Below, piece after piece: positions 22,963 through 45,081 of a stretch of DNA of 64,000 nucleotides. The position numbers were made by a program, and so were the translations under genes. A model generated the notes under the pieces. That model did no database searches and was not told the DNA's origin. It saw only the letters and a program-made list of their open reading frames with translations. The DNA comes from Kaistella carnis (GTDB taxonomy: Bacteria > Bacteroidota > Bacteroidia > Flavobacteriales > Weeksellaceae): the NCBI RefSeq assembly GCF_003860585.1, contig NZ_CP034159.1, positions 2,294,001-2,358,000 of the forward strand, given 5' to 3'. Position 1 is the stretch's first letter, and each line of letters opens with the position of its first letter.

Positions 22963-23095
22963 AGGCTGTGTTTTGAGTTAAATTTAATAAATAAATATCA
23001 ATCTCCGGTAAAAGAATGGGGTGGAACTGCAAACGTAAATGAAAGAAGGGTGAATAAACGCAAAAAATCTCACTAAAAAGCAAGATTTTTATAAG

Positions 23096-23170
23096 TGGGC
23101 GATACTGGGTTCGAACCAGCGACCTCTGCGATGTCAACGCAACGCTCTAAACCAACTGAGCTAACCGCCC
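23096..23170 (-). tRNA. tRNA-Val (anticodon GAC), left copy
   Basis: The 75-nt cloverleaf has an acceptor stem GGGCGGT/ATCGCCC, D-arm AGCTCAGTTGG, an anticodon loop TTGACAT on a 5-bp stem, and T-loop GGTTCGAACC. CCA is not encoded. This is likely the original chromosomal copy, as it is on the ComM side of the integration point. It differs from the right copy by one base in the T-stem (C versus T on the plus strand). Confidence 0.95.
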
Positions 23171-23174
23171 TTAA

Positions 23175-23202
23175 TTAAAAAAACCTCAGAATAAACTGAG
23201 GT
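23175..23202 (-). terminator. Hairpin between the tRNA-Val genes (left copy)
   Basis: The stem ACCTCAG/CTGAGGT with a 6-base loop and a following T-run on the minus strand lies between the tRNA-Val(UAC) remnant and tRNA-Val(GAC). It may be a terminator or a processing signal in a tRNA operon. Confidence 0.5.
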
Positions 23203-23210
23203 TTCTTGGG

Positions 23211-23232
23211 TGGGCCCTGAGGGATTCGAACC
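23211..23232 (-). pseudogene. 3' end fragment of tRNA-Val(UAC) (attL)
   Basis: These 22 nt are identical to the 3' end of the intact tRNA-Val(UAC) at 45007-45081. The rest of the tRNA is missing and is replaced by unrelated island sequence starting TATTGTC. This marks the left end of the inserted island. Confidence 0.9.
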
Positions 23233-30824: not shown

Positions 30825-32402
30825 ATGCCCACATTACATTGGATTGGAAAAGACAAAGTCATTAATCATCACCAAGATGTTCCTTACAGAATTTTAGAGA
30901 AGCAATACACCTACAAAGATGGGCAAGAAAGTGATGCTCCTTCTGAGAACAAAATCATTCATGGAGATAACCTTGAAGCCTTAAAATCTTTGCTGCCTGA
31001 GTACGAAGGGAAAGTAAAGTGCATCTACATAGATCCACCTTATAACACAGGAAATGAGGGCTGGGTTTACAATGACAATGTGAATGATCCTAAACTTAAA
31101 AAATGGTTAGGACAAGTTGTAGGCAAAGAAAGTGAAGATTTATCTAGGCATGATAAGTGGCTCTGCATGATGTATCCTAGATTAAAACTTTTGCATAAGC
31201 TTTTAGCAGAAGATGGTGCTATTTTTATTTCTATTGATGACAATGAACAAGCCAATTTAAAGTTGATTTGCGATGAAATCTTTGGAGGTAGAAATTTTGT
31301 AACTGACTTAGTTTGGAGACACAGTGATAATAGTAATAATAATACTTTAAAGTTTTCAGAGGATTACAACCACACTTTGATTTACTCAAAAAAAGATGAC
31401 TGGAAACCAAATTTTTTAAATGATGTTGACAAGAGAAAACATTTTAAAAACCCTGATAATGATCCCAAAGGTCCATGGTTTGATGGAAATCCAGTTAATA
31501 ATCCAGGACTTAGGGTTAATCTTCAATACAACATTGAGACACCATCAGGTAAAATCATTAAACATCCTCCAAATGGTTGGAGGTGGTCAAAGGAAACCAT
31601 TGCTGAAAAATTAAGCACTGGAGAATTAAGATTTTCTCCAGATGAAAAAAGATTAATTAGAAGAACTTATTTGAATGAATCAGAGGGCTTGCCTCCATCA
31701 AATCTATGGATAGATTTAGAAAAAACCAGTCATACTAGAAGAGCAAAATATGACTTGAAAAGTATATTTCCTGAAGTTGCTACTACGAGTTTGTTCCCAA
31801 CTCCAAAAGCAACCAAATTCATTGAAAATATACTCAAAATAGCAACACTCCAGGATTCCATTATTTTAGACTCATTTGCAGGTTCAGGTACCACAGCACA
31901 TGCAGTTTTAAACCTCAACAAAGAAGATGGTGGCAATAGAAAGTTTATCCTCATAGAAATGGAAGACTATGCAGACACCATTACTGCTGAAAGAGTCAAG
32001 AGAGTCATCACTGGTTATGGTGAAGAGAAAAAAGCAGTTGAAGGTACTGGTGGAGATTTTAGTTATTATGTGTTAGGGAAACCTGTGTTTCTAGACAATG
32101 AAATGCTCAATGAGGAAATAGGCAAAGAAAAGATTGAAGAGTATGTGTGGTTCAGTGAGACCAAACTACCCTACCAAGCACAGCAAGAAAATTATTTATT
32201 GGGTACTAAAGACCAAACTGCTTATTATTTCTACTATGATCCAAACAGTATTACCACACTTGATGAAAGCTTTTTAAGAACCTTGAAGACCAAAGCTAGT
32301 CAGTACATCATCTATGCAGATAATTGCCTTTTGACAAAGGAACTGATGCAGAAGTACAATATAATCTTCAAAAAGATTCCAAGAGACATAACAAGATTTT
32401 AA
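30825..32402 (+). CDS. mod: Type III restriction system DNA methyltransferase (Mod)
   Basis: Mod recognises the target sequence and methylates adenine at N6 with S-adenosylmethionine. The 525-residue protein carries the catalytic DPPYNTG (about residues 70-76) ahead of the AdoMet site DSFAGSGTTAHA (about 350), the order found in beta-class type III enzymes. The variable region between them (about 130-330) is the expected target-recognition domain. The C-terminal ~120 residues would contact Res. It is first gene of a five-gene plus-strand operon, and the frame is intact. Confidence 0.93.
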   Translation: MPTLHWIGKDKVINHHQDVPYRILEKQYTYKDGQESDAPSENKIIHGDNLEALKSLLPEYEGKVKCIYIDPPYNTGNEGWVYNDNVNDPKLKKWLGQVVGKESEDLSRHDKWLCMMYPRLKLLHKLLAEDGAIFISIDDNEQANLKLICDEIFGGRNFVTDLVWRHSDNSNNNTLKFSEDYNHTLIYSKKDDWKPNFLNDVDKRKHFKNPDNDPKGPWFDGNPVNNPGLRVNLQYNIETPSGKIIKHPPNGWRWSKETIAEKLSTGELRFSPDEKRLIRRTYLNESEGLPPSNLWIDLEKTSHTRRAKYDLKSIFPEVATTSLFPTPKATKFIENILKIATLQDSIILDSFAGSGTTAHAVLNLNKEDGGNRKFILIEMEDYADTITAERVKRVITGYGEEKKAVEGTGGDFSYYVLGKPVFLDNEMLNEEIGKEKIEEYVWFSETKLPYQAQQENYLLGTKDQTAYYFYYDPNSITTLDESFLRTLKTKASQYIIYADNCLLTKELMQKYNIIFKKIPRDITRF

Positions 32403-32467
32403 CATACATAAGAAAGTGAAGAAAGATAGTTATATGACAAAGATGTAAACAAAATACTAAACAAGAG

Positions 32468-32539
32468 TGTGCACAACGAGTATGATATGCACAAGAAGAT
32501 GTAGTTTTGTGTGCACATACAATTGAATATACACAAGAA
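32468..32539 (+). promoter_or_regulatory. 42-bp tandem operator-like repeat before the Fic gene
   Basis: The palindrome TGTGCACA occurs at 32468-32475 and again at 32510-32517, exactly 42 bp apart. Each is followed at the same distance by ATATGCACAAGAA or ATATACACAAGAA (32485-32497, 32527-32539), also 42 bp apart. The second copy ends 2 bp before the Fic ATG. The spacing equals about four helical turns, which fits binding of two dimers on one face of the DNA. Confidence 0.6.
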
Positions 32540-32541
32540 AT

Positions 32542-33615
32542 ATGGAAAATGAATTTGATATTCCTCAGTTACCACCAAGAGTTGATGTTGAAACTGTTAA
32601 TATATTAAAAGCTCTAAATAGTGCTAGTAGAGCATTAGGAGAATTAAAAGGTGAGATTAAAAAGATCCCCAACTCTCAAATACTTATTGATACCATATCA
32701 TTACAAGAAGCAAAAGACAGTAATGAAGTAGAAAATATAGTAACAACTGATGACGAGCTTTATCAAGCATCTATAGAGCCAGATAATATTTCTAATGAAG
32801 CAAAGGAAGCAGTGAATTATGCTAAAGCTCTAAAACTTGGGTTTGAAATAATAAAATCCAAAGGAATTTTAAGCATCAATGACATCAAGAAGATTCAAGA
32901 AATTGTATCTCCTAATCACCCTGTTAGGAAGCTTCCAGGAACAGTTTTAAAAAACCCCAAAACCCAAGAAGTTGTTTTTACACCACCACAAAATCACACC
33001 CAAATTGTTTCCTTATTAAGCAATCTTGAAAAATATATCAATGACAAAGAATTTCATGATGTAGACAGTATCATAAAAATGGCAATTATCCATCATCAAT
33101 TTGAGAGCATTCACCCTTTTTATGATGGAAATGGTAGAACTGGCAGAATACTGAATGTTCTGTATTTAGTGCAACAAGGTCTTTTAGATATTCCTGTTCT
33201 GTACCTAAGTAGTTATGTAATAAAAAACAAATCAGATTATTACAGATTATTACAAGAAGTTAGAACCAAGCGCAGTTGGGAAGAGTGGATTATATGGATG
33301 TTAAAAGGAGTTGAAGCAACTGCAAAAGAGACCATCATTGTTGTTAATAAAATAAAAAACTTGATGGATGAGTATAAAATTAAAATAAGAGCCAATCACA
33401 AATTCTACAGTCATGATCTAATCAATACATTGTTTAAGCATCCTTACACTAAAATAGAATTTATGGAAAGAGAACTCAACATCCATAGAAATACAGCAAG
33501 TAGTTATCTAAATTCTTTAGTAAATGATGAAAATCAATTTTTAATTAAAATTAAGATCGGGAAAAGTTATTATTTTGTGAACCATAGACTATTAAATATT
33601 TTGAAAAGCAGATAA
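32542..33615 (+). CDS. Fic-family protein with winged helix (class II)
   Basis: Fic proteins attach AMP (or another nucleotide moiety) to hydroxyl groups of target proteins. The 357-residue product has a Fic_N-type region, the catalytic motif HPFYDGNGR (191-199) with His191, and an N-terminal inhibitory-helix motif SNEVEN (60-65, S..xE-N pattern), placing it in self-inhibited class II. The C-terminal ~90 residues look like a winged helix (MERELNIHRNTASSYLNSL). It sits between mod and res, its stop overlapping the res start by one base. It may modify Res, or regulate the operon through the upstream repeat. Confidence 0.9.
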   Translation: MENEFDIPQLPPRVDVETVNILKALNSASRALGELKGEIKKIPNSQILIDTISLQEAKDSNEVENIVTTDDELYQASIEPDNISNEAKEAVNYAKALKLGFEIIKSKGILSINDIKKIQEIVSPNHPVRKLPGTVLKNPKTQEVVFTPPQNHTQIVSLLSNLEKYINDKEFHDVDSIIKMAIIHHQFESIHPFYDGNGRTGRILNVLYLVQQGLLDIPVLYLSSYVIKNKSDYYRLLQEVRTKRSWEEWIIWMLKGVEATAKETIIVVNKIKNLMDEYKIKIRANHKFYSHDLINTLFKHPYTKIEFMERELNIHRNTASSYLNSLVNDENQFLIKIKIGKSYYFVNHRLLNILKSR

Positions 33616-36281
33616 TGGAGCTTAAATCATACCAGCAAGAGGTCATCAATGACCTGGAAAATTTCCTGGACTATCTTAACCAAAATTCTAACCCTTCAAA
33701 AGCTTTTAACAGTTATTGGAAGGACAGAATAGGTGAGTATAATCCATTGACCAATAGTGGAATGAAGCCTTATAAAAATAACATTCCAAATGCTGTACAC
33801 ATTGCAGTAAAAGTTCCTACAGCAGGTGGTAAGACTTTCATTGCCATTAATGCTTTGCAGTCTTTCAACAAATACTTTAACCAAGGAAATCCTAAAGCAG
33901 TAGTTTGGTTAGTTCCTTGGTCAAATCTACTGCAACAAACTTATAACGCATTTTCTAATCCTAACCACCCTTATAGAGAAAAACTAAATTCTCTGTTTGG
34001 AAATAAGGTGGAGGTATATCAAAAAGACCAATTACTACAAGGTGCTAATTTCAATCCCAGTTCAGCTACAGAGCAGTTGAATATTTTTATTTTAAACTTT
34101 AGCAGTTTGAGAATTGACAAGGCTAAGAAAGAAGACAGGAAGATATTTCAGGAGAATGGTGCATTAGAATCTTTCAGAGATTGGACAGATAAAGATTTAA
34201 GTCTTGAAGGTACAGATGAAACAGCACTCATTAATATCATTAGAAATTTAAACCCTATTGTGGTGGTAGATGAAAGCCACAATGCTGAAAGTGATCTAAG
34301 TGTGGAAATGCTCAAGAATCTAAATCCAAGTATGGTACTGGATCTTACAGCTACTCCCAAAGAGAACAGTAACATCATCAGTTTTGTAAGTGCTTTGAGG
34401 TTGAAGAAAGAGCACATGGTTAAGTTACCAGTGGTAGTGTTTAATCATCACAGAAAAGAAGAGGTGATCTCTAGTGCTTTACATCTACAAAGAAAACTGG
34501 AGTTACATGCAAAAGAAGAAGAGAAAATTACTGGTAGGTATATAAGACCAATAGTTTTGTTCCAGGCACAATCCAATATCAAAGGAAAAGACAACACCAC
34601 TTTTCAGAAAATTAAAGAACAGCTTATCAAACTACAGATTCCAGAGGAACAGATAAAAATCAAGGTAAGTGGTATTGATGAGTTAAAAGGCATTGATTTG
34701 ATGGACAGAAATTGTCCAGTCAAGTACATTATTACTGTGAATGCTTTGAAAGAAGGTTGGGACTGTCCAAATGCCTATATCTTAGCATCTTTGGCAGATA
34801 AATCTTCTGCTGTAGAGGTAGAACAGATTTTAGGAAGAGTTTTAAGGCAACCTTATGTTACTAAACATCAAGAGCCATTATTGAATATGTCCTTTGTTTT
34901 AACAGCTTCATCAAAGTTCAAAGAAACTTTAGAGAATATTGTCAAAGGATTGCAAGATGCCGGGTTTAGTAAAGAAGATTATTATGCAGAAGAGGCACAG
35001 GAAATTCCAGAAACAAGAGAAGAAATTCTCCAAAAAGAACTATTTGGTAATGATGAACCAGAAATGGAACCTGATCCAAAAGAGCAGTTTGATGTTGAAC
35101 AGGTAGACTTTGATCCAAATGAGAAGGTGACATTGGAAGATTACCAAACCAAGCAAGGACTTTCTGCTATCAGTCAACTCACAGAAAAGGCTACTGTTGA
35201 AGCCACTACTTTTGAACAAAATATTGAAAATCTAGACCTAGATAATAACGTAACCTTAATGACAGAAGTAATGAAGAAAACTCCTAAGAGGTATGTGATG
35301 GAAGAAGAATATAAGAGCATAGTTTCTGACATTACTTTGCCCCAGTTCTTCATCAAAGTAAATGATGAAATAGGTGATGGGATTTTGTTTGATGAATTGA
35401 AGCAAGAAGAAACACTACTCAATAAGCTAAACTTATTGGATGGGTTTAACTTGCTGAACTGTGACACTCAAATTAATTTTGATGATGCAGCAGCAGAAGT
35501 CTATAAAGTAGATTTTGATGAAAGTAAAGGTACATCTACGATGAATAAGCTGTCCAAAAAAGCAGTAGATATTCTGACAGATTCCATACTTGCTAAGCCT
35601 AAAGACAGTCAGATAAGACAAGTTGCAGGCATCATTGTAGGTAAGTTGGGAGATATGACTCCAATCTCTGACCAAGACTTAAAAAAATATGTAAGCAGAA
35701 TTTTTGAGAATCTTACTTCTGAACAAATTAGAGACATCATCAACAATGATTACCTCTACACCTACAAAATTAAAGAAAAGATAAAAAGCCTGACAGACAG
35801 TTTTGCCAAAGAACAGTTTGTACAGCTTTTAGATTCCAATGAAATTACAGTAAAACCTAATTTTCAATTTGGTGAATCTATTACTCCAATTATAGCCTCT
35901 GAACCAATCTCAAAATCATTGTACCATCAAGAAGATACTATGAATAACTTTGAGCATAGAATGGCTTTAGAAATATCTTCTATGGACAATGTGGTCTTCT
36001 GGCACAGGAACATGACTAGAGGTAAAGGTTTCTTCATCAATGGGTACAGTTCTAACCATTATCCAGACTTCATTATCTACACCAGTAAAAATAATCTGAT
36101 ATTGCTGGAGACTAAAGGAGATTACTTGGTAAATAATGATACTAAAGAAAAGAATAAGTTAGGAAAACTGTGGATAGATAAAGCAGGTTCTAACTACAAG
36201 TACTTCATGGTATTTGAAAAGGCAAATGTTGAAGGGTGTTATAATGAGGGGAATATTTTGGAGGTTTTGAAGAGGTTGTAA
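33615..36281 (+). CDS. res: Type III restriction endonuclease helicase-nuclease (Res)
   Basis: Res is the ATP-driven SF2 translocase and nuclease subunit that cuts unmodified DNA together with Mod. The 888-residue protein has Walker A PTAGGKT (68-74), DESH (219-222), motif III-like DLTATPKE, motif VI EQILGRVLRQPY, and a C-terminal PD...ExK nuclease site (PD 817-818, E832-T-K834). All key residues are present, so it should be active. It overlaps the Fic stop by one base, showing tight coupling of fic and res rather than of mod and res. Confidence 0.93.
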   Translation: MELKSYQQEVINDLENFLDYLNQNSNPSKAFNSYWKDRIGEYNPLTNSGMKPYKNNIPNAVHIAVKVPTAGGKTFIAINALQSFNKYFNQGNPKAVVWLVPWSNLLQQTYNAFSNPNHPYREKLNSLFGNKVEVYQKDQLLQGANFNPSSATEQLNIFILNFSSLRIDKAKKEDRKIFQENGALESFRDWTDKDLSLEGTDETALINIIRNLNPIVVVDESHNAESDLSVEMLKNLNPSMVLDLTATPKENSNIISFVSALRLKKEHMVKLPVVVFNHHRKEEVISSALHLQRKLELHAKEEEKITGRYIRPIVLFQAQSNIKGKDNTTFQKIKEQLIKLQIPEEQIKIKVSGIDELKGIDLMDRNCPVKYIITVNALKEGWDCPNAYILASLADKSSAVEVEQILGRVLRQPYVTKHQEPLLNMSFVLTASSKFKETLENIVKGLQDAGFSKEDYYAEEAQEIPETREEILQKELFGNDEPEMEPDPKEQFDVEQVDFDPNEKVTLEDYQTKQGLSAISQLTEKATVEATTFEQNIENLDLDNNVTLMTEVMKKTPKRYVMEEEYKSIVSDITLPQFFIKVNDEIGDGILFDELKQEETLLNKLNLLDGFNLLNCDTQINFDDAAAEVYKVDFDESKGTSTMNKLSKKAVDILTDSILAKPKDSQIRQVAGIIVGKLGDMTPISDQDLKKYVSRIFENLTSEQIRDIINNDYLYTYKIKEKIKSLTDSFAKEQFVQLLDSNEITVKPNFQFGESITPIIASEPISKSLYHQEDTMNNFEHRMALEISSMDNVVFWHRNMTRGKGFFINGYSSNHYPDFIIYTSKNNLILLETKGDYLVNNDTKEKNKLGKLWIDKAGSNYKYFMVFEKANVEGCYNEGNILEVLKRL

Positions 36282-36323
36282 AGAATAATCATTGAGTTAA
36301 TATTTTTGGTATAAATTTGCAGA

Positions 36324-37208
36324 ATGTTTTATAGAAGAAAAGTTATTTTAGCAATTTTAGAAGTATTTGGAAATGAAATAGAAAAAGTAAGACTTCAAAA
36401 ATTACTTTTCTTATTGAGTAAAGTTCAAAGTAAGCCAGCTTATGATTTTGTCCCATACAAGTTTGGATGTTACTCGTTTTCAGCAAGTGCTGACATTGCT
36501 ACAATGATTAAGAAAGGTATTTTGGTTGATACTGACAATGGCTTAAAGAAAGATGATCCCACTATTTACTTCAAATCTTTGATTAAAAAAGATCAACTAA
36601 TTATAGAAGAATTAAAGAAATTTTATGGAAATTTGAGTGTGACGGGTTTAATGAAGCACACCTATATCAATTTTCCATTTTGGGCAACCAAAAGTCTTAG
36701 AGCAAAAGAAATCCTAAGTTCAGAACAATTTGATAATGTTTCCAAGGCTATACCCTCTTCAAGTGAGATAATCTTGTTTACCATTGGATATGAAGGAATA
36801 TCTCTTGAAGAATATCTGCTTAAACTTCTGAAAAATGATATCAAGGTACTTGTCGATGTGAGAAGAAACCCATTAAGTATGAAGTTTGGATTTAGTAAAA
36901 GTCTATTGAAGAAGTATTGTAATGCTTTGGATTTGGAGTATGTGCATTTCCCTGAAGTTGGTATTCAATCTGATGAAAGGCAAGAATTACATACACAAGC
37001 AGACTATAATGCTTTATTCTTGAGATATAGGACTAATAATATTCCTACAACAATTGAAATACAAGATAAAATATTAGACCTTCTCAAAACACACTCAAGA
37101 ATAGCATTGACTTGTTTTGAAGCTAGTCACTGTCAATGTCATAGAAGCGATTTGGCAACAGCCATTATAGCAAGGTCAGATAATAAATTTGAATTAAAGC
37201 ACATTTAA
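36324..37208 (+). CDS. Panacea-like/DUF488 fusion protein
   Basis: The 294-residue protein appears to be a fusion. Residues 1-140 (KVRLQKLLFLLSK, FVPYKFGCYSFSASADIATM) resemble the SocA/Panacea (DUF4065-type) fold used in antitoxin-like proteins, a loose match. Residues 150-294 match DUF488: FTIGYEGISLEEYLLKLL, LVDVRRNPLSMKFGFSK and a cysteine/histidine tail CFEASHCQCHRSDLA. DUF488 is of unknown function and often lies beside DNA modification genes. It begins 42 bp after res; its stop is directly followed by the next ATG. Confidence 0.75.
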   Translation: MFYRRKVILAILEVFGNEIEKVRLQKLLFLLSKVQSKPAYDFVPYKFGCYSFSASADIATMIKKGILVDTDNGLKKDDPTIYFKSLIKKDQLIIEELKKFYGNLSVTGLMKHTYINFPFWATKSLRAKEILSSEQFDNVSKAIPSSSEIILFTIGYEGISLEEYLLKLLKNDIKVLVDVRRNPLSMKFGFSKSLLKKYCNALDLEYVHFPEVGIQSDERQELHTQADYNALFLRYRTNNIPTTIEIQDKILDLLKTHSRIALTCFEASHCQCHRSDLATAIIARSDNKFELKHI

Positions 37209-38045
37209 ATGGCTAAAACTAAAGTCCTAATCACTGTCACTACTTATCCACTTCCATCGCGAAGTTATGATGAACTTGTTTGTACAGCAGGAGTTTTAGA
37301 AGATGGCACTTGGATAAGAATATATCCAGTTCCTTTTAAATTTTTGCAAGGATTTAAGGATGGACAGAAATTAAGTTCGTTTAAATATCACTGGGTAGAA
37401 ATGGACTTAGTTAAAAGGGAGGATGATTTCAGACCTGAAAGTCATTCACCTTCAGATTATGATTTCTCAAAGGTATTGTCGATAGGTAAAGTTAATACCA
37501 AAAATAATTGGCAAGAAAGAAAACACTACTGTCTTAAAAATGTTTACACTAATAAGGGTAAACTTATCGAAGACTCAAAGGCACCAAACAATATTTCATT
37601 GGTTACATTCAAACCATCAAAAATCACTTCTTTTGAGATTGTAGATGATGAAAGAGAATGGAAGGAAGTTTGGAAAGAATTAAGAAAGCAGGGTGATTTA
37701 TTTGACCAAGATAAAGAAACTGAAATTCAAATTAGAAAGTTGCCTTATAAATTTTACTATAATTTTCTTGATGATGAAGGTGTTAGTAGCAGATTAATGA
37801 TAGAAGATTGGGAAATTGGTGCTTTATATTGGAATTGCTTAAAAGCATCAGAGGGTAATGAAATTTTAGCACTTCAAAAGGTGAGAGAAAGATATGAATC
37901 TCAATTTATCAACCATAATGACATTTATCTATTTCTTGGTACAACAAAGGAATGGCATTTAAGAAGGGGCAAAAATCCATTTGTTATTATAGGGGTTTTT
38001 TATCCATTGATACAAAAAGAAGAGCAACTAAGTCTGTTCTTTTAG
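37209..38045 (+). CDS. DUF488-partner protein ending in a clamp-binding motif
   Basis: The 278-residue soluble protein begins KTKVLITVTTYPLPSRSYDELVC. Similar proteins are, as I recall, often encoded beside DUF488 genes, but I cannot name the family. It ends with EEQLSLFF: QLSLF is a perfect match to the bacterial beta sliding-clamp-binding pentapeptide (QL[SD]LF), and it lies at the extreme C-terminus where it would be exposed. This suggests the protein is brought to replicating or repairing DNA. The ATG follows the previous stop with no gap, and a terminator-like hairpin follows. Confidence 0.6.
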   Translation: MAKTKVLITVTTYPLPSRSYDELVCTAGVLEDGTWIRIYPVPFKFLQGFKDGQKLSSFKYHWVEMDLVKREDDFRPESHSPSDYDFSKVLSIGKVNTKNNWQERKHYCLKNVYTNKGKLIEDSKAPNNISLVTFKPSKITSFEIVDDEREWKEVWKELRKQGDLFDQDKETEIQIRKLPYKFYYNFLDDEGVSSRLMIEDWEIGALYWNCLKASEGNEILALQKVRERYESQFINHNDIYLFLGTTKEWHLRRGKNPFVIIGVFYPLIQKEEQLSLFF

Positions 38046-43539: not shown

Positions 43540-44733
43540 TTAGCTCAATTTAATATTTAATTTGTCCATCTGTTCACTCACCTTTCTCTGGACAACTTTC
43601 GCATAGTGTGCTTGGGTAATTCCAATTTCAGAATGTCCTAGTAGTTCAGATACTATTTCCATAGGAACATCATTGTATAGTAGGATAGTAGAAGCAAAGG
43701 TCTTTCTAGCAGTGTGATGAGTGAGTTTCTTACTAATTCCAATGATATCAGCTATTTCCTTTAGGTAAGCATTGAATTTTTGGTTCGAAATTAAAGGTAA
43801 GATCTGGTAATCATTTTTATACTTACCCAAAATTATCTTTGCTTTGTCTAGTAAAGGGACGCTATATGTTCTAGTTGTTTTCTGTCTTGTGATGTTGATC
43901 CAAATATTCTTATCAAAGTTTACAACTAAATCTTTAGGTTGTAGATTTGCCATTTCAGTATATGCAAGTCCTGTATAGCAACAAAATATAAACATATCTG
44001 CAACTTGTTGAAGCCTAGCTGATGCAAATTGATGATTTTCAAGACTACATAGTTCTTCTGTAGTAAGAAATATTATTTGTTTCTTAGGTTTCTTGTTCTT
44101 ATGAAGCAGGAATGGATCTTTATCAAGAAAATCTAACCCTACGGTTTGTTTTATGATTTGCTTAAATCTCTGTAAGGTTTTGTGAATGGTATTCTGTTCA
44201 AATTGTTTCTCAGCTTTAAGATAATATTCAAACTCGTTAATAAAACTCATCTTCAAATTCTGAAGTAGAAAGTCTGATCTATTGAATTTCCACTTTATAA
44301 AATTCTTTACGTGAGCCTTAGTCTGATGGAACTTGCTTACTGATCCTTGAGTTGTGCTGATTCCAATTAGCTTTTCTTGCTTATTAATATAAAGATTAAA
44401 CATTTCCATGACAGTTTTATCCTGCTTGATATTTTCTCCTTTGTATTGACTGTAGATATCATCTACATTAAAGTCCTTTGCTTGGATTTGAAGCAATAAA
44501 AAAGCCTGATTAAGTTCTTGTTTAATCAGGCTCAATTGAGTGTTTATTTGAGTGTGCTCTGTGTCTCGTGGGATTGCTTTCTGTTTAGAAGCATTCCAAA
44601 AATTGGGATTAATGAACAATCCGGAGGAAAAAGGCTTTCTCTTCTTATCTAATGTTATTCTACATTCGATTGGACAGACACCCTTAAGATTAATCTTGTT
44701 CCTTCTTAAAAGGAATAGTATTGATAGTTTCAT
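43540..44733 (-). CDS. int: Tyrosine recombinase (integrase) of the island
   Basis: The enzyme catalyses site-specific integration and excision at the tRNA-Val att site. The 397-residue protein has an Arm-DNA-binding N-terminus (MKLSILFLLRRNKINLKG), a SAM-like core-binding domain, and a catalytic domain with HTARKTF (HxxR), LGHSEIGIT and the nucleophile in HYAKV. In the box I region the usual Arg is Ala (CCYTGLAYTEM), a feature shared with many Bacteroidota integrases. It lies 157 bp from attR and points inward, as expected. Confidence 0.93.
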   Translation of the reverse strand: MKLSILFLLRRNKINLKGVCPIECRITLDKKRKPFSSGLFINPNFWNASKQKAIPRDTEHTQINTQLSLIKQELNQAFLLLQIQAKDFNVDDIYSQYKGENIKQDKTVMEMFNLYINKQEKLIGISTTQGSVSKFHQTKAHVKNFIKWKFNRSDFLLQNLKMSFINEFEYYLKAEKQFEQNTIHKTLQRFKQIIKQTVGLDFLDKDPFLLHKNKKPKKQIIFLTTEELCSLENHQFASARLQQVADMFIFCCYTGLAYTEMANLQPKDLVVNFDKNIWINITRQKTTRTYSVPLLDKAKIILGKYKNDYQILPLISNQKFNAYLKEIADIIGISKKLTHHTARKTFASTILLYNDVPMEIVSELLGHSEIGITQAHYAKVVQRKVSEQMDKLNIKLS

Positions 44734-44889
44734 TGTAGTAATGGGGGTTTAAATGGGTAACCTAGAATTTCAGTGGGTAACCTAGAGGGTAACCTAAAAA
44801 AGATTTTAGTTGTGCTATTTCATGATTGTAAGAGAATACAAGTAGTTGCCCTAAACAAAAAAACTCCTCAATTTCTTGAGAAGTTTTGG

Positions 44890-44964
44890 TGGGCGATACT
44901 GGGTTCGAACCAGTGACCTCTGCGATGTCAACGCAACGCTCTAAACCAACTGAGCTAACCGCCC
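44890..44964 (-). tRNA. tRNA-Val (anticodon GAC), island-borne copy
   Basis: The 75-nt cloverleaf is identical to the left copy except for one T-stem base, giving a weaker pair there. Anticodon loop is TTGACAT. By position it came with the island and now follows the intact tRNA-Val(UAC). Both tRNAs probably remain functional, so insertion duplicates rather than destroys tRNA genes. Confidence 0.95.
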
Positions 44965-44970
44965 TAAATT

Positions 44971-44998
44971 AAAAAAAAACCTCAGAATAAACTGAGGT
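44971..44998 (-). terminator. Hairpin between the tRNA-Val genes (right copy)
   Basis: The stem ACCTCAG/CTGAGGT and T-run are the same as in the left copy, with two additional bases in the T/A-tract. Confidence 0.5.
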
Positions 44999-45006
44999 TT
45001 CTTGGG

Positions 45007-45081
45007 TGGGCCCTGAGGGATTCGAACCCCCGACCCTCTCGGTGTAAACGAGATGCTCTGAACCAACTGAGCTAAGAGCCC
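45007..45081 (-). tRNA. tRNA-Val (anticodon UAC), integration target
   Basis: The 75-nt cloverleaf has acceptor GGGCTCT/AGGGCCC (one G-T pair), D-arm AGCTCAGTTGG, an anticodon loop TTTACAC and T-loop GGTTCGAATCC. The 5' part belongs to the host chromosome, while the T-loop and 3' end were supplied by the island on integration. CCA is not encoded. Confidence 0.95.

What the first reader, a model, noticed from the sequence alone, without database searches (positions are those of the whole stretch)
30825..38045. Five-gene operon: type III Mod, Fic, Res, DUF488 fusion and a clamp-binding protein
All five genes run on the same strand with coupled or near-zero junctions from fic onward (1-bp overlap, 42 bp, 0 bp). 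A classical type III system needs only mod and res. Interposing Fic between them and adding a Panacea/DUF488 fusion with a partner suggests one larger defence system, where methylation state, a post-translational modifier and replication-fork recruitment work together. I know no named system with this gene set.
Basis: partly seen in the sequence, partly recalled or inferred. Interest (0 to 1): 0.75.

Follow-up and report, generated by a model that had tools for sequence, protein, structure and literature searches.

The report
Restriction operon carrying two accessory modules
A mobile island in a Bacteroidota genome carries a DNA-cutting defence operon into which two separately mobile modules have been added: a toxin-like protein modifier, and a widespread protein pair, one of which ends in a tag expected to grip the DNA-replication clamp.

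Summary
The five genes, strands and junctions are as described. They are mod and res of a type III restriction system, a SoFic-type Fic gene between them, and a pair that PADLOC already lists as defence candidate PDC-M19A/B. They lie in a 21.8-kb element integrated at tRNA-Val.

The five-gene set is not conserved. M19 is absent from 49 loci with related res genes, and SoFic sits between mod and res in 1 of 49. But it is no pure accident. SoFic lies in restriction operons in 5 of 20 related loci. The M19 pair has a same-strand restriction gene within 2 kb in 19 of 80 loci.

The parts
30825..32402 (+). mod: type III DNA methyltransferase (525 aa), DPPY and FAGSG motifs
   Evidence: (PADLOC MTase_III 675.8 bits)
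32467..32539 (+). two 31-nt direct repeats (74% alike) with TGTGCACA palindromes just before fic; possible operator
   Evidence: sequence only
32542..33615 (+). SoFic-type Fic protein (357 aa): HPFYDGNGRTGR active site, SNEVEN inhibitory motif, SoFic-like C-terminal domain
   Evidence: (SoFic 377.6 bits)
33615..36281 (+). res: type III restriction subunit (888 aa): PTAGGKT, DESH, QILGRVLR, PD-ExK
36324..37208 (+). PDC-M19A: Panacea-like N-terminal domain fused to DUF488 (294 aa)
   Evidence: (395.9 bits)
37209..38045 (+). PDC-M19B (278 aa): predicted OB-like body, low-confidence (probably flexible) C-terminal tail ending QLSLFF (clamp-binding motif)
   Evidence: (378.7 bits)
23095..23232 (.). 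left attachment repeat: tRNA-Val(gac) plus a piece of the next tRNA-Val
44889..45028 (.). right attachment repeat of the same sequence, at the tRNA-Val pair
43540..44733 (-). tyrosine integrase of the element

Best explanation
The locus is a type III restriction operon on a tRNA-Val-integrated element that has taken in two accessory modules of the kind restriction operons repeatedly acquire. Module 1 is mod+res: methylation marks self and Res cuts unmarked DNA. Module 2 is SoFic, an autoinhibited AMPylating toxin between mod and res; expressed with the restriction enzyme it most likely serves as a backup that halts the cell when restriction is overcome (inferred, by analogy with PrrC). Module 3 is the PDC-M19 pair: M19B uses its C-terminal clamp motif, and probably an OB-fold body, to sit at replication forks and brings the DUF488 protein M19A there (motif and pairing shown by comparison; clamp binding, ssDNA binding and DUF488 chemistry inferred). 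The modules share a strand and perhaps a transcript, not a conserved machine.
For: Families and intact motifs. Mod and Res share G+C (0.349, 0.348) while Fic (0.303), M19A (0.308) and M19B (0.319) are lower. Mod-res without Fic is the rule; a same-strand gene of 200 aa or more lies between them in 7 of 49 loci: SoFic, Fic, RhuM twice, DUF1016/YhcG, DUF3800, Bro-N. In the one other mod-SoFic-res locus (L042) Fic is 73% identical but Mod 49% and Res 51%, as expected if Fic moved separately. SoFic has a same-strand restriction gene within 2.5 kb in 5 of 20 (L270 and L273 Pfam-confirmed). M19 pair: 19 of 80 with a same-strand restriction gene within 2 kb, e.g. HsdR-M19A-M19B-HsdS-HsdM in L105 and the same with RhuM before HsdM in L087; HsdM in 12 of 80 loci against 1.25 expected; at least 12 changes of this state on the M19B tree. 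M19B tail motif 72 of 78 and 113 of 120, shuffled means 2.3 and 2.9; M19A tails 0 of 80. An M19A-type DUF488 protein precedes M19B in 80 of 80 loci, and DUF488 is beside it in 12 of 15 plasmid records opened. SoFic as abortive toxin: abstract and section 2.1 of PMC12249575. Restriction-embedded Fic/Doc and RhuM proposed in PMC3710099 (passages).
Confidence: 0.55

Rival explanations
1. Hitchhiking only: three independent defence units stacked in one mobile island by selection for carriage, with no functional coupling.
For: M19 and SoFic are mostly free of nearby restriction genes; the island is a mobile element at tRNA-Val; no other locus examined has the set.
Against: SoFic and M19 are found inside restriction operons, between subunit genes and often with gaps of a few to a few tens of bases; HsdM 12 of 80 against 1.25 expected.
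Confidence: 0.2
2. M19 is a SocAB-like toxin-antitoxin pair: M19B jams the clamp and so replication; the Panacea-like DUF488 protein restrains it until phage infection.
For: Panacea-like N-terminus; SocA is a Panacea antitoxin and SocB a clamp-binding toxin (passages of PMC8832971; PMC9690074; PMC12795458); tight two-gene pair with M19A first.
Against: GPV signature lost. The Panacea part is not constant: DUF488 beside M19B also occurs alone, with HTH or with ParB, so DUF488 and not Panacea is the conserved partner. M19B is a conserved body of about 270 aa. The metG-linked copies look like stable genes. M19B was not compared with SocB itself.
Confidence: 0.1
3. M19 protects the host's own forks from its restriction enzymes (restriction alleviation): tethered to the host clamp it shields or repairs freshly replicated, incompletely methylated DNA.
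For: Repeated placement inside restriction operons of types I and III; clamp tail; type III sites are methylated on one strand, so replication makes unmodified copies (recalled).
Against: 61 of 80 pairs have no same-strand restriction gene found within 2 kb; I recall no alleviation factor of this kind; chemistry of DUF488 unknown.
Confidence: 0.1
4. One dedicated five-gene defence machine.
For: Same strand and short junctions.
Against: Set not found in any of the 49 Res, 20 SoFic or 80 M19 loci examined; differing G+C.
Confidence: 0.05

Closest known systems
Type III restriction-modification (mod-res)
   Same: Mod and Res families, order, catalytic motifs
   Different: Fic gene between mod and res; two more genes downstream
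SoFic (class II Fic AMPylase, anti-phage)
   Same: Fic_N, Fic and SoFic-like_C domains, active and inhibitory motifs; solved SoFic structures align over residues 16-354
   Different: In Streptococcus thermophilus it is described as a stand-alone unit (passage of PMC11514479), and in E. coli H397 with a downstream 47-aa AS1 antitoxin; here the downstream gene is res. Below NCBIfam's cut-off
PDC-M19 (PADLOC phage-defence candidate)
   Same: Both proteins, adjacent, full-length profile matches
   Different: No mechanism found in print (no paper held has the term). The clamp tail, the restriction-operon placement and the metG placement are added here
PrrC-EcoprrI and other restriction-embedded toxins
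   Same: A toxin gene inside a restriction operon as second line of defence (PMC3710099, passages)
   Different: Fic AMPylation instead of an anticodon nuclease; type III instead of type Ic; latency control not shown
SocAB and RipAB clamp-targeting toxin-antitoxin systems
   Same: Clamp as target; Panacea-type partner in SocAB (passages)
   Different: DUF488, not Panacea, is the constant partner of M19B; toxicity of M19B unknown; no sequence comparison with SocB or RipA was made

Membership tests
Type III restriction-modification | Mod with beta-type N6/N4 methylase motifs | tested here: met
   PF01555 E 8.9e-40; DPPY at 70, DSFAGSG at 349
Type III restriction-modification | Res with SF2 helicase motifs and PD-ExK nuclease | tested here: met
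Type III restriction-modification | restriction of unmodified DNA | not testable with these tools
   needs an assay
SoFic | Fic motif HxFx(D/E)GNGRxxR with inhibitory (S/T)xxxE(G/N) | tested here: met
   HPFYDGNGRTGR at 191, SNEVEN at 60; motif definitions recalled
SoFic | score above NCBIfam equivalog cut-off (NF046030, 550 bits) | tested here: not met
   369.2 bits; PADLOC SoFic 377.6 bits
SoFic | AS1-like small antitoxin downstream | not tested
   res follows with a 1-bp overlap; no search for AS1 homologues elsewhere was made
PDC-M19 | adjacent M19A and M19B proteins | tested here: met
PDC-M19 | anti-phage activity | not testable with these tools
   candidate only
Panacea (SocA-type) antitoxin | Pfam SocA_Panacea match | tested here: not met
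   no hit to the protein at E up to 10; no match in the window's genome
Panacea (SocA-type) antitoxin | profile-level relation and GPV signature | tested here: inconclusive
   hhalign 86%, P 4.9e-6, but GCY in place of GPV, and a few of the 21 template frames look wrong
Clamp-binding protein | C-terminal QL(S/D)LF-type motif | tested here: met
   72 of 78, 113 of 120; motif from PMC9690074 (passage)
Clamp-binding protein | physical binding to DnaN | not testable with these tools
   needs an assay
OB-fold ssDNA-binding protein | structural match to RPA/SSB-type OB folds | tested here: inconclusive
Restriction-embedded toxin (PrrC-like) | toxin gene inside a restriction operon | tested here: met
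   fic between mod and res; 5 of 20 related loci beside restriction genes
Restriction-embedded toxin (PrrC-like) | toxin held latent by the restriction complex | not testable with these tools
   needs an assay

The most novel reading that the evidence does not exclude
PDC-M19 is a two-protein replication-fork module shared by bacteria and archaea: an OB-fold protein that holds the clamp (beta clamp by a QLSLF tail, PCNA by a PIP-like tail) and delivers a DUF488 enzyme whose extra N-terminal domain is exchangeable (Panacea-like, ParB, HTH or none). Restriction operons of types I and III repeatedly recruit it so that cutting is coordinated with whose DNA is being replicated.
Probability: 0.25. 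Interest if true: 0.8.

Novelty: new variant of a known kind. Interest (0 to 1): 0.5.

Why it matters
It shows that a 'five-gene system' can be a restriction operon carrying exchangeable accessory modules, which warns against naming a system from one locus. It also gives a testable handle on PDC-M19, a family with thousands of homologues (6,878 at E 0.001 or better) and no mechanism found in print here: a conserved clamp-binding tail, a steady DUF488 partner and repeated placement inside restriction operons. If confirmed, it would link restriction to the replication fork.

Tried and rejected
Considered and rejected: a single conserved five-gene system (none of the 49 Res, 20 SoFic or 80 M19 loci examined holds the set). 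My first reading that M19 is unrelated to restriction (looked only for relatives of the window's Mod, Res and Fic) was wrong and was corrected after the scan of neighbours.

Led nowhere: no solved-structure relative of M19B or clear one of M19A by sequence; Pfam has no family for M19B; promoter and terminator counts equal shuffles, so operon transcription is not shown. The strict PIP pattern is in only 6 of 65 archaeal-type M19B tails (shuffled mean 0.5), and the bacterial clamp pattern in 8 of 65 (shuffled mean 1.6); the looser core [LIMF]x[DNE][FYIW], in 20 of 21 and 28 of 44 against 1 of 120 bacterial-type tails, was chosen after seeing the tails. Distant bacterial or phage M19B tails carry the clamp motif in 6 of 9, read by eye; Rhizobium, Arthrobacter and S. 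canus do not. No model of M19A was obtained. A Foldseek PDB search of M19B was not accepted, so absent families mean nothing.

Rows dropped: 2 of 80 M19B (L053 split, L111 short) from the tail counts and the tree; three distant Res loci (L047-L049, read: mod-res adjacent, nothing between) from the 49; 5 of 20 plasmid records (H29, H31-H34) and 6 of 7 phage records were not opened; 78 of 183 neighbour proteins were left out of the scan.
Full report
What is there. Families: Mod N6_N4_Mtase; Fic_N, Fic and SoFic-like_C; Res ResIII; DUF488; and a partner with no Pfam family. PADLOC names them MTase_III, SoFic, REase_III, PDC-M19A and PDC-M19B. Active-site motifs of Mod, Fic and Res are intact. The genes lie in an element of about 21.8 kb between two copies of a roughly 138-bp repeat made of tRNA-Val(gac), a spacer and part of a second tRNA-Val; it carries an integrase, DUF3871, AAA_24, a helicase, RadC and SRAP genes. 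In the genus, 36 of 36 genomes (the window's own among them) match the region; in some, for example G160 and G180, one uninterrupted match covers the tRNA pair, as expected for an empty site.

Is the set conserved? I took related Res loci from samples of family, order and phylum (26 of 246 genomes with matches at E 0.001; 9 of 395 and 38 of 395 at E 1e-50) and read 49 of them with flanks. Mod directly before Res is usual. A gene of 200 aa or more on the same strand lies between them in 7 of 49: SoFic (L042), another Fic (L176), RhuM (L175, L183), DUF1016/YhcG (L179), DUF3800 (L182) and Bro-N (L184). So the mod-res junction accepts different accessory genes. M19 proteins were found in 0 of these 49 loci and in 0 of 19 SoFic loci.

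SoFic. In the same family 21 of 242 genomes, the window's included, have a match at E 1e-40 or better. Of 20 loci other than the window (19 fetched plus L042), 5 have a same-strand restriction gene within 2.5 kb: mod-SoFic-res (L042), mod-res-SoFic (L270, L274) and type I operons with SoFic before hsdR (L271, L273) (L270 and L273 Pfam-confirmed). A Pontibacter plasmid has mod-res followed by a gene annotated as Fic. In L042 Fic is 73% identical to the window's, but Mod 49% and Res 51%, so Fic seems to have moved on its own. The closest SoFic, 86% identical, in G019, has no restriction gene found in the 12 kb fetched. SoFic is reported as an AMPylating toxin causing abortive infection (abstract and section 2.1 of PMC12249575). 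Restriction operons with Fic/Doc and RhuM genes were described and compared with PrrC in 2013 (PMC3710099, passages). I therefore infer a backup toxin; latency control by Mod or Res is not shown.

The M19 pair. M19A precedes M19B in 80 of 80, with 0-7 bp between them in 60 and an overlap in 10. My first check, limited to relatives of the window's Mod, Res and Fic, found almost nothing (one Res, one Fic). A scan of 105 of 183 neighbouring proteins then showed 8 type I specificity subunits and 9 methionyl-tRNA synthetases. With type I references added, 19 of 80 loci have a restriction gene on the same strand within 2 kb. Examples: HsdR-M19A-M19B-HsdS-HsdM (L105), HsdR-M19A-M19B-HsdS-RhuM-HsdM (L087), HsdM-HsdS-orf-M19A-M19B-HsdR (L129), HsdM-HsdS-YhcG-M19 (L064) and M19-Res (L067). 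Ten of these neighbours were scanned with Pfam and nine gave type I families, four HsdR and five HsdS. HsdM is near M19 in 12 of 80 loci against 1.25 expected from 379 N6_Mtase matches in 401.7 Mb; this treats related loci as independent. On the M19B tree the restriction-linked state needs at least 12 changes over 79 rows, 11 when 11 rows with short flanks are left open; 12 of the linked rows fall in one branch of 17 rows. The window's copy groups with L050, L051 and L052, of which L051 is a type I locus.

Against a purely defensive role, 14 of 80 pairs sit 12-25 bp behind metG and form one supported clade of Flavobacteriaceae.

The clamp tail. The last 16 residues hold QxxL[FW] or QxxLx[FL] in 72 of 78 loci whose M19B frame is 240 aa or longer (shuffled mean 2.3, highest 9) and in 113 of 120 homologues (shuffled 2.9); M19A tails 0 of 80. 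The spacer before the motif varies while the Q is nearly invariant. The model of M19B (mean pLDDT 82, pTM 0.82) falls to about 50 at the last residues, as a free peptide would. QL(S/D)LF at the C-terminus is the bacterial clamp motif and Qxx[I/L]xxFF the PCNA motif (PMC9690074, passage); the six-residue form QxxLx[FL] is recalled. Six of nine distant bacterial or phage proteins keep the motif at or near the end. Archaeal-type relatives (65 proteins; the 8 with a named organism are all archaeal) match the bacterial pattern in 8 of 65, and have tails such as QKSLFNFF (P0160) and QKTLFDIL (P0145); strict PIP 6 of 65, loose core 48 of 65 against 1 of 120 bacterial-type tails, chosen post hoc. I count this as suggestive.

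How it most likely works. Shown by sequence: intact type III system, intact Fic site, conserved pair and tail. Inferred: Mod-Res restrict; SoFic acts when restriction is beaten; M19B sits at forks through the clamp, perhaps also on ssDNA, and brings DUF488 to that place. Whether that harms phage forks, poisons the host, or shields host DNA from its own restriction enzymes cannot be told here.

Novelty. No held paper has 'PDC-M19'; of the 20 listed of 53 papers in the Panacea-antitoxin-DUF488 search none has both Panacea and DUF488; the 25 papers with DUF488 are by title and abstract about other matters, with one passage read, on ParB-DUF488-HTH fusions in archaea; and the 9 papers of a clamp-and-defence search were by title and abstract nothing of this kind. 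Subscription papers and preprints are mostly not in that library. The modules are known; their combination, the clamp tail and the restriction-operon habit of M19 appear new to me.

Noticed in passing
window 23095-45028: The whole region is a 21.8-kb element integrated at tRNA-Val with integrase, RadC, SRAP, DUF3871, AAA_24 and a large helicase; some relatives of the genus show the uninterrupted tRNA pair.
   Followed up: partly
window 32467-32539: Two 31-nt direct repeats with TGTGCACA palindromes lie directly before fic, possibly an operator.
   Followed up: no
L084, L090, L092, L093, L097-L099, L104, L115, L120, L122, L123, L125, L128: M19A follows metG by 12-25 bp in 14 of 80 loci, a fixed place in Flavobacteriaceae.
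   Followed up: partly
L206:1945-3870: In a Saccharolobus plasmid a ParB-DUF488 fusion stands directly before the M19B relative; a DUF488-HTH fusion of the ParB-CTPase fold in archaea that binds CTP is mentioned in PMC12704722 (one passage).
   Followed up: partly
L207:2974-3828: Gordonia phages (7 records, one opened) carry an M19B relative with a QISLF motif near its end, close to the integrase and a gene annotated as immunity repressor; no DUF488 neighbour found.
   Followed up: partly
L205:3852-4358 and L206:3870-4361: A small gene of unknown family follows M19B in two Sulfolobales plasmids; no Pfam match for the one tested, L205.
   Followed up: no
L211:8822-11113: In a Fibrella plasmid a Piwi-domain protein is annotated directly behind a related restriction gene.
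   Followed up: no
window genome G000: Six N6_Mtase matches in one 3.2-Mb genome: rich in type I-like restriction genes.
   Followed up: no
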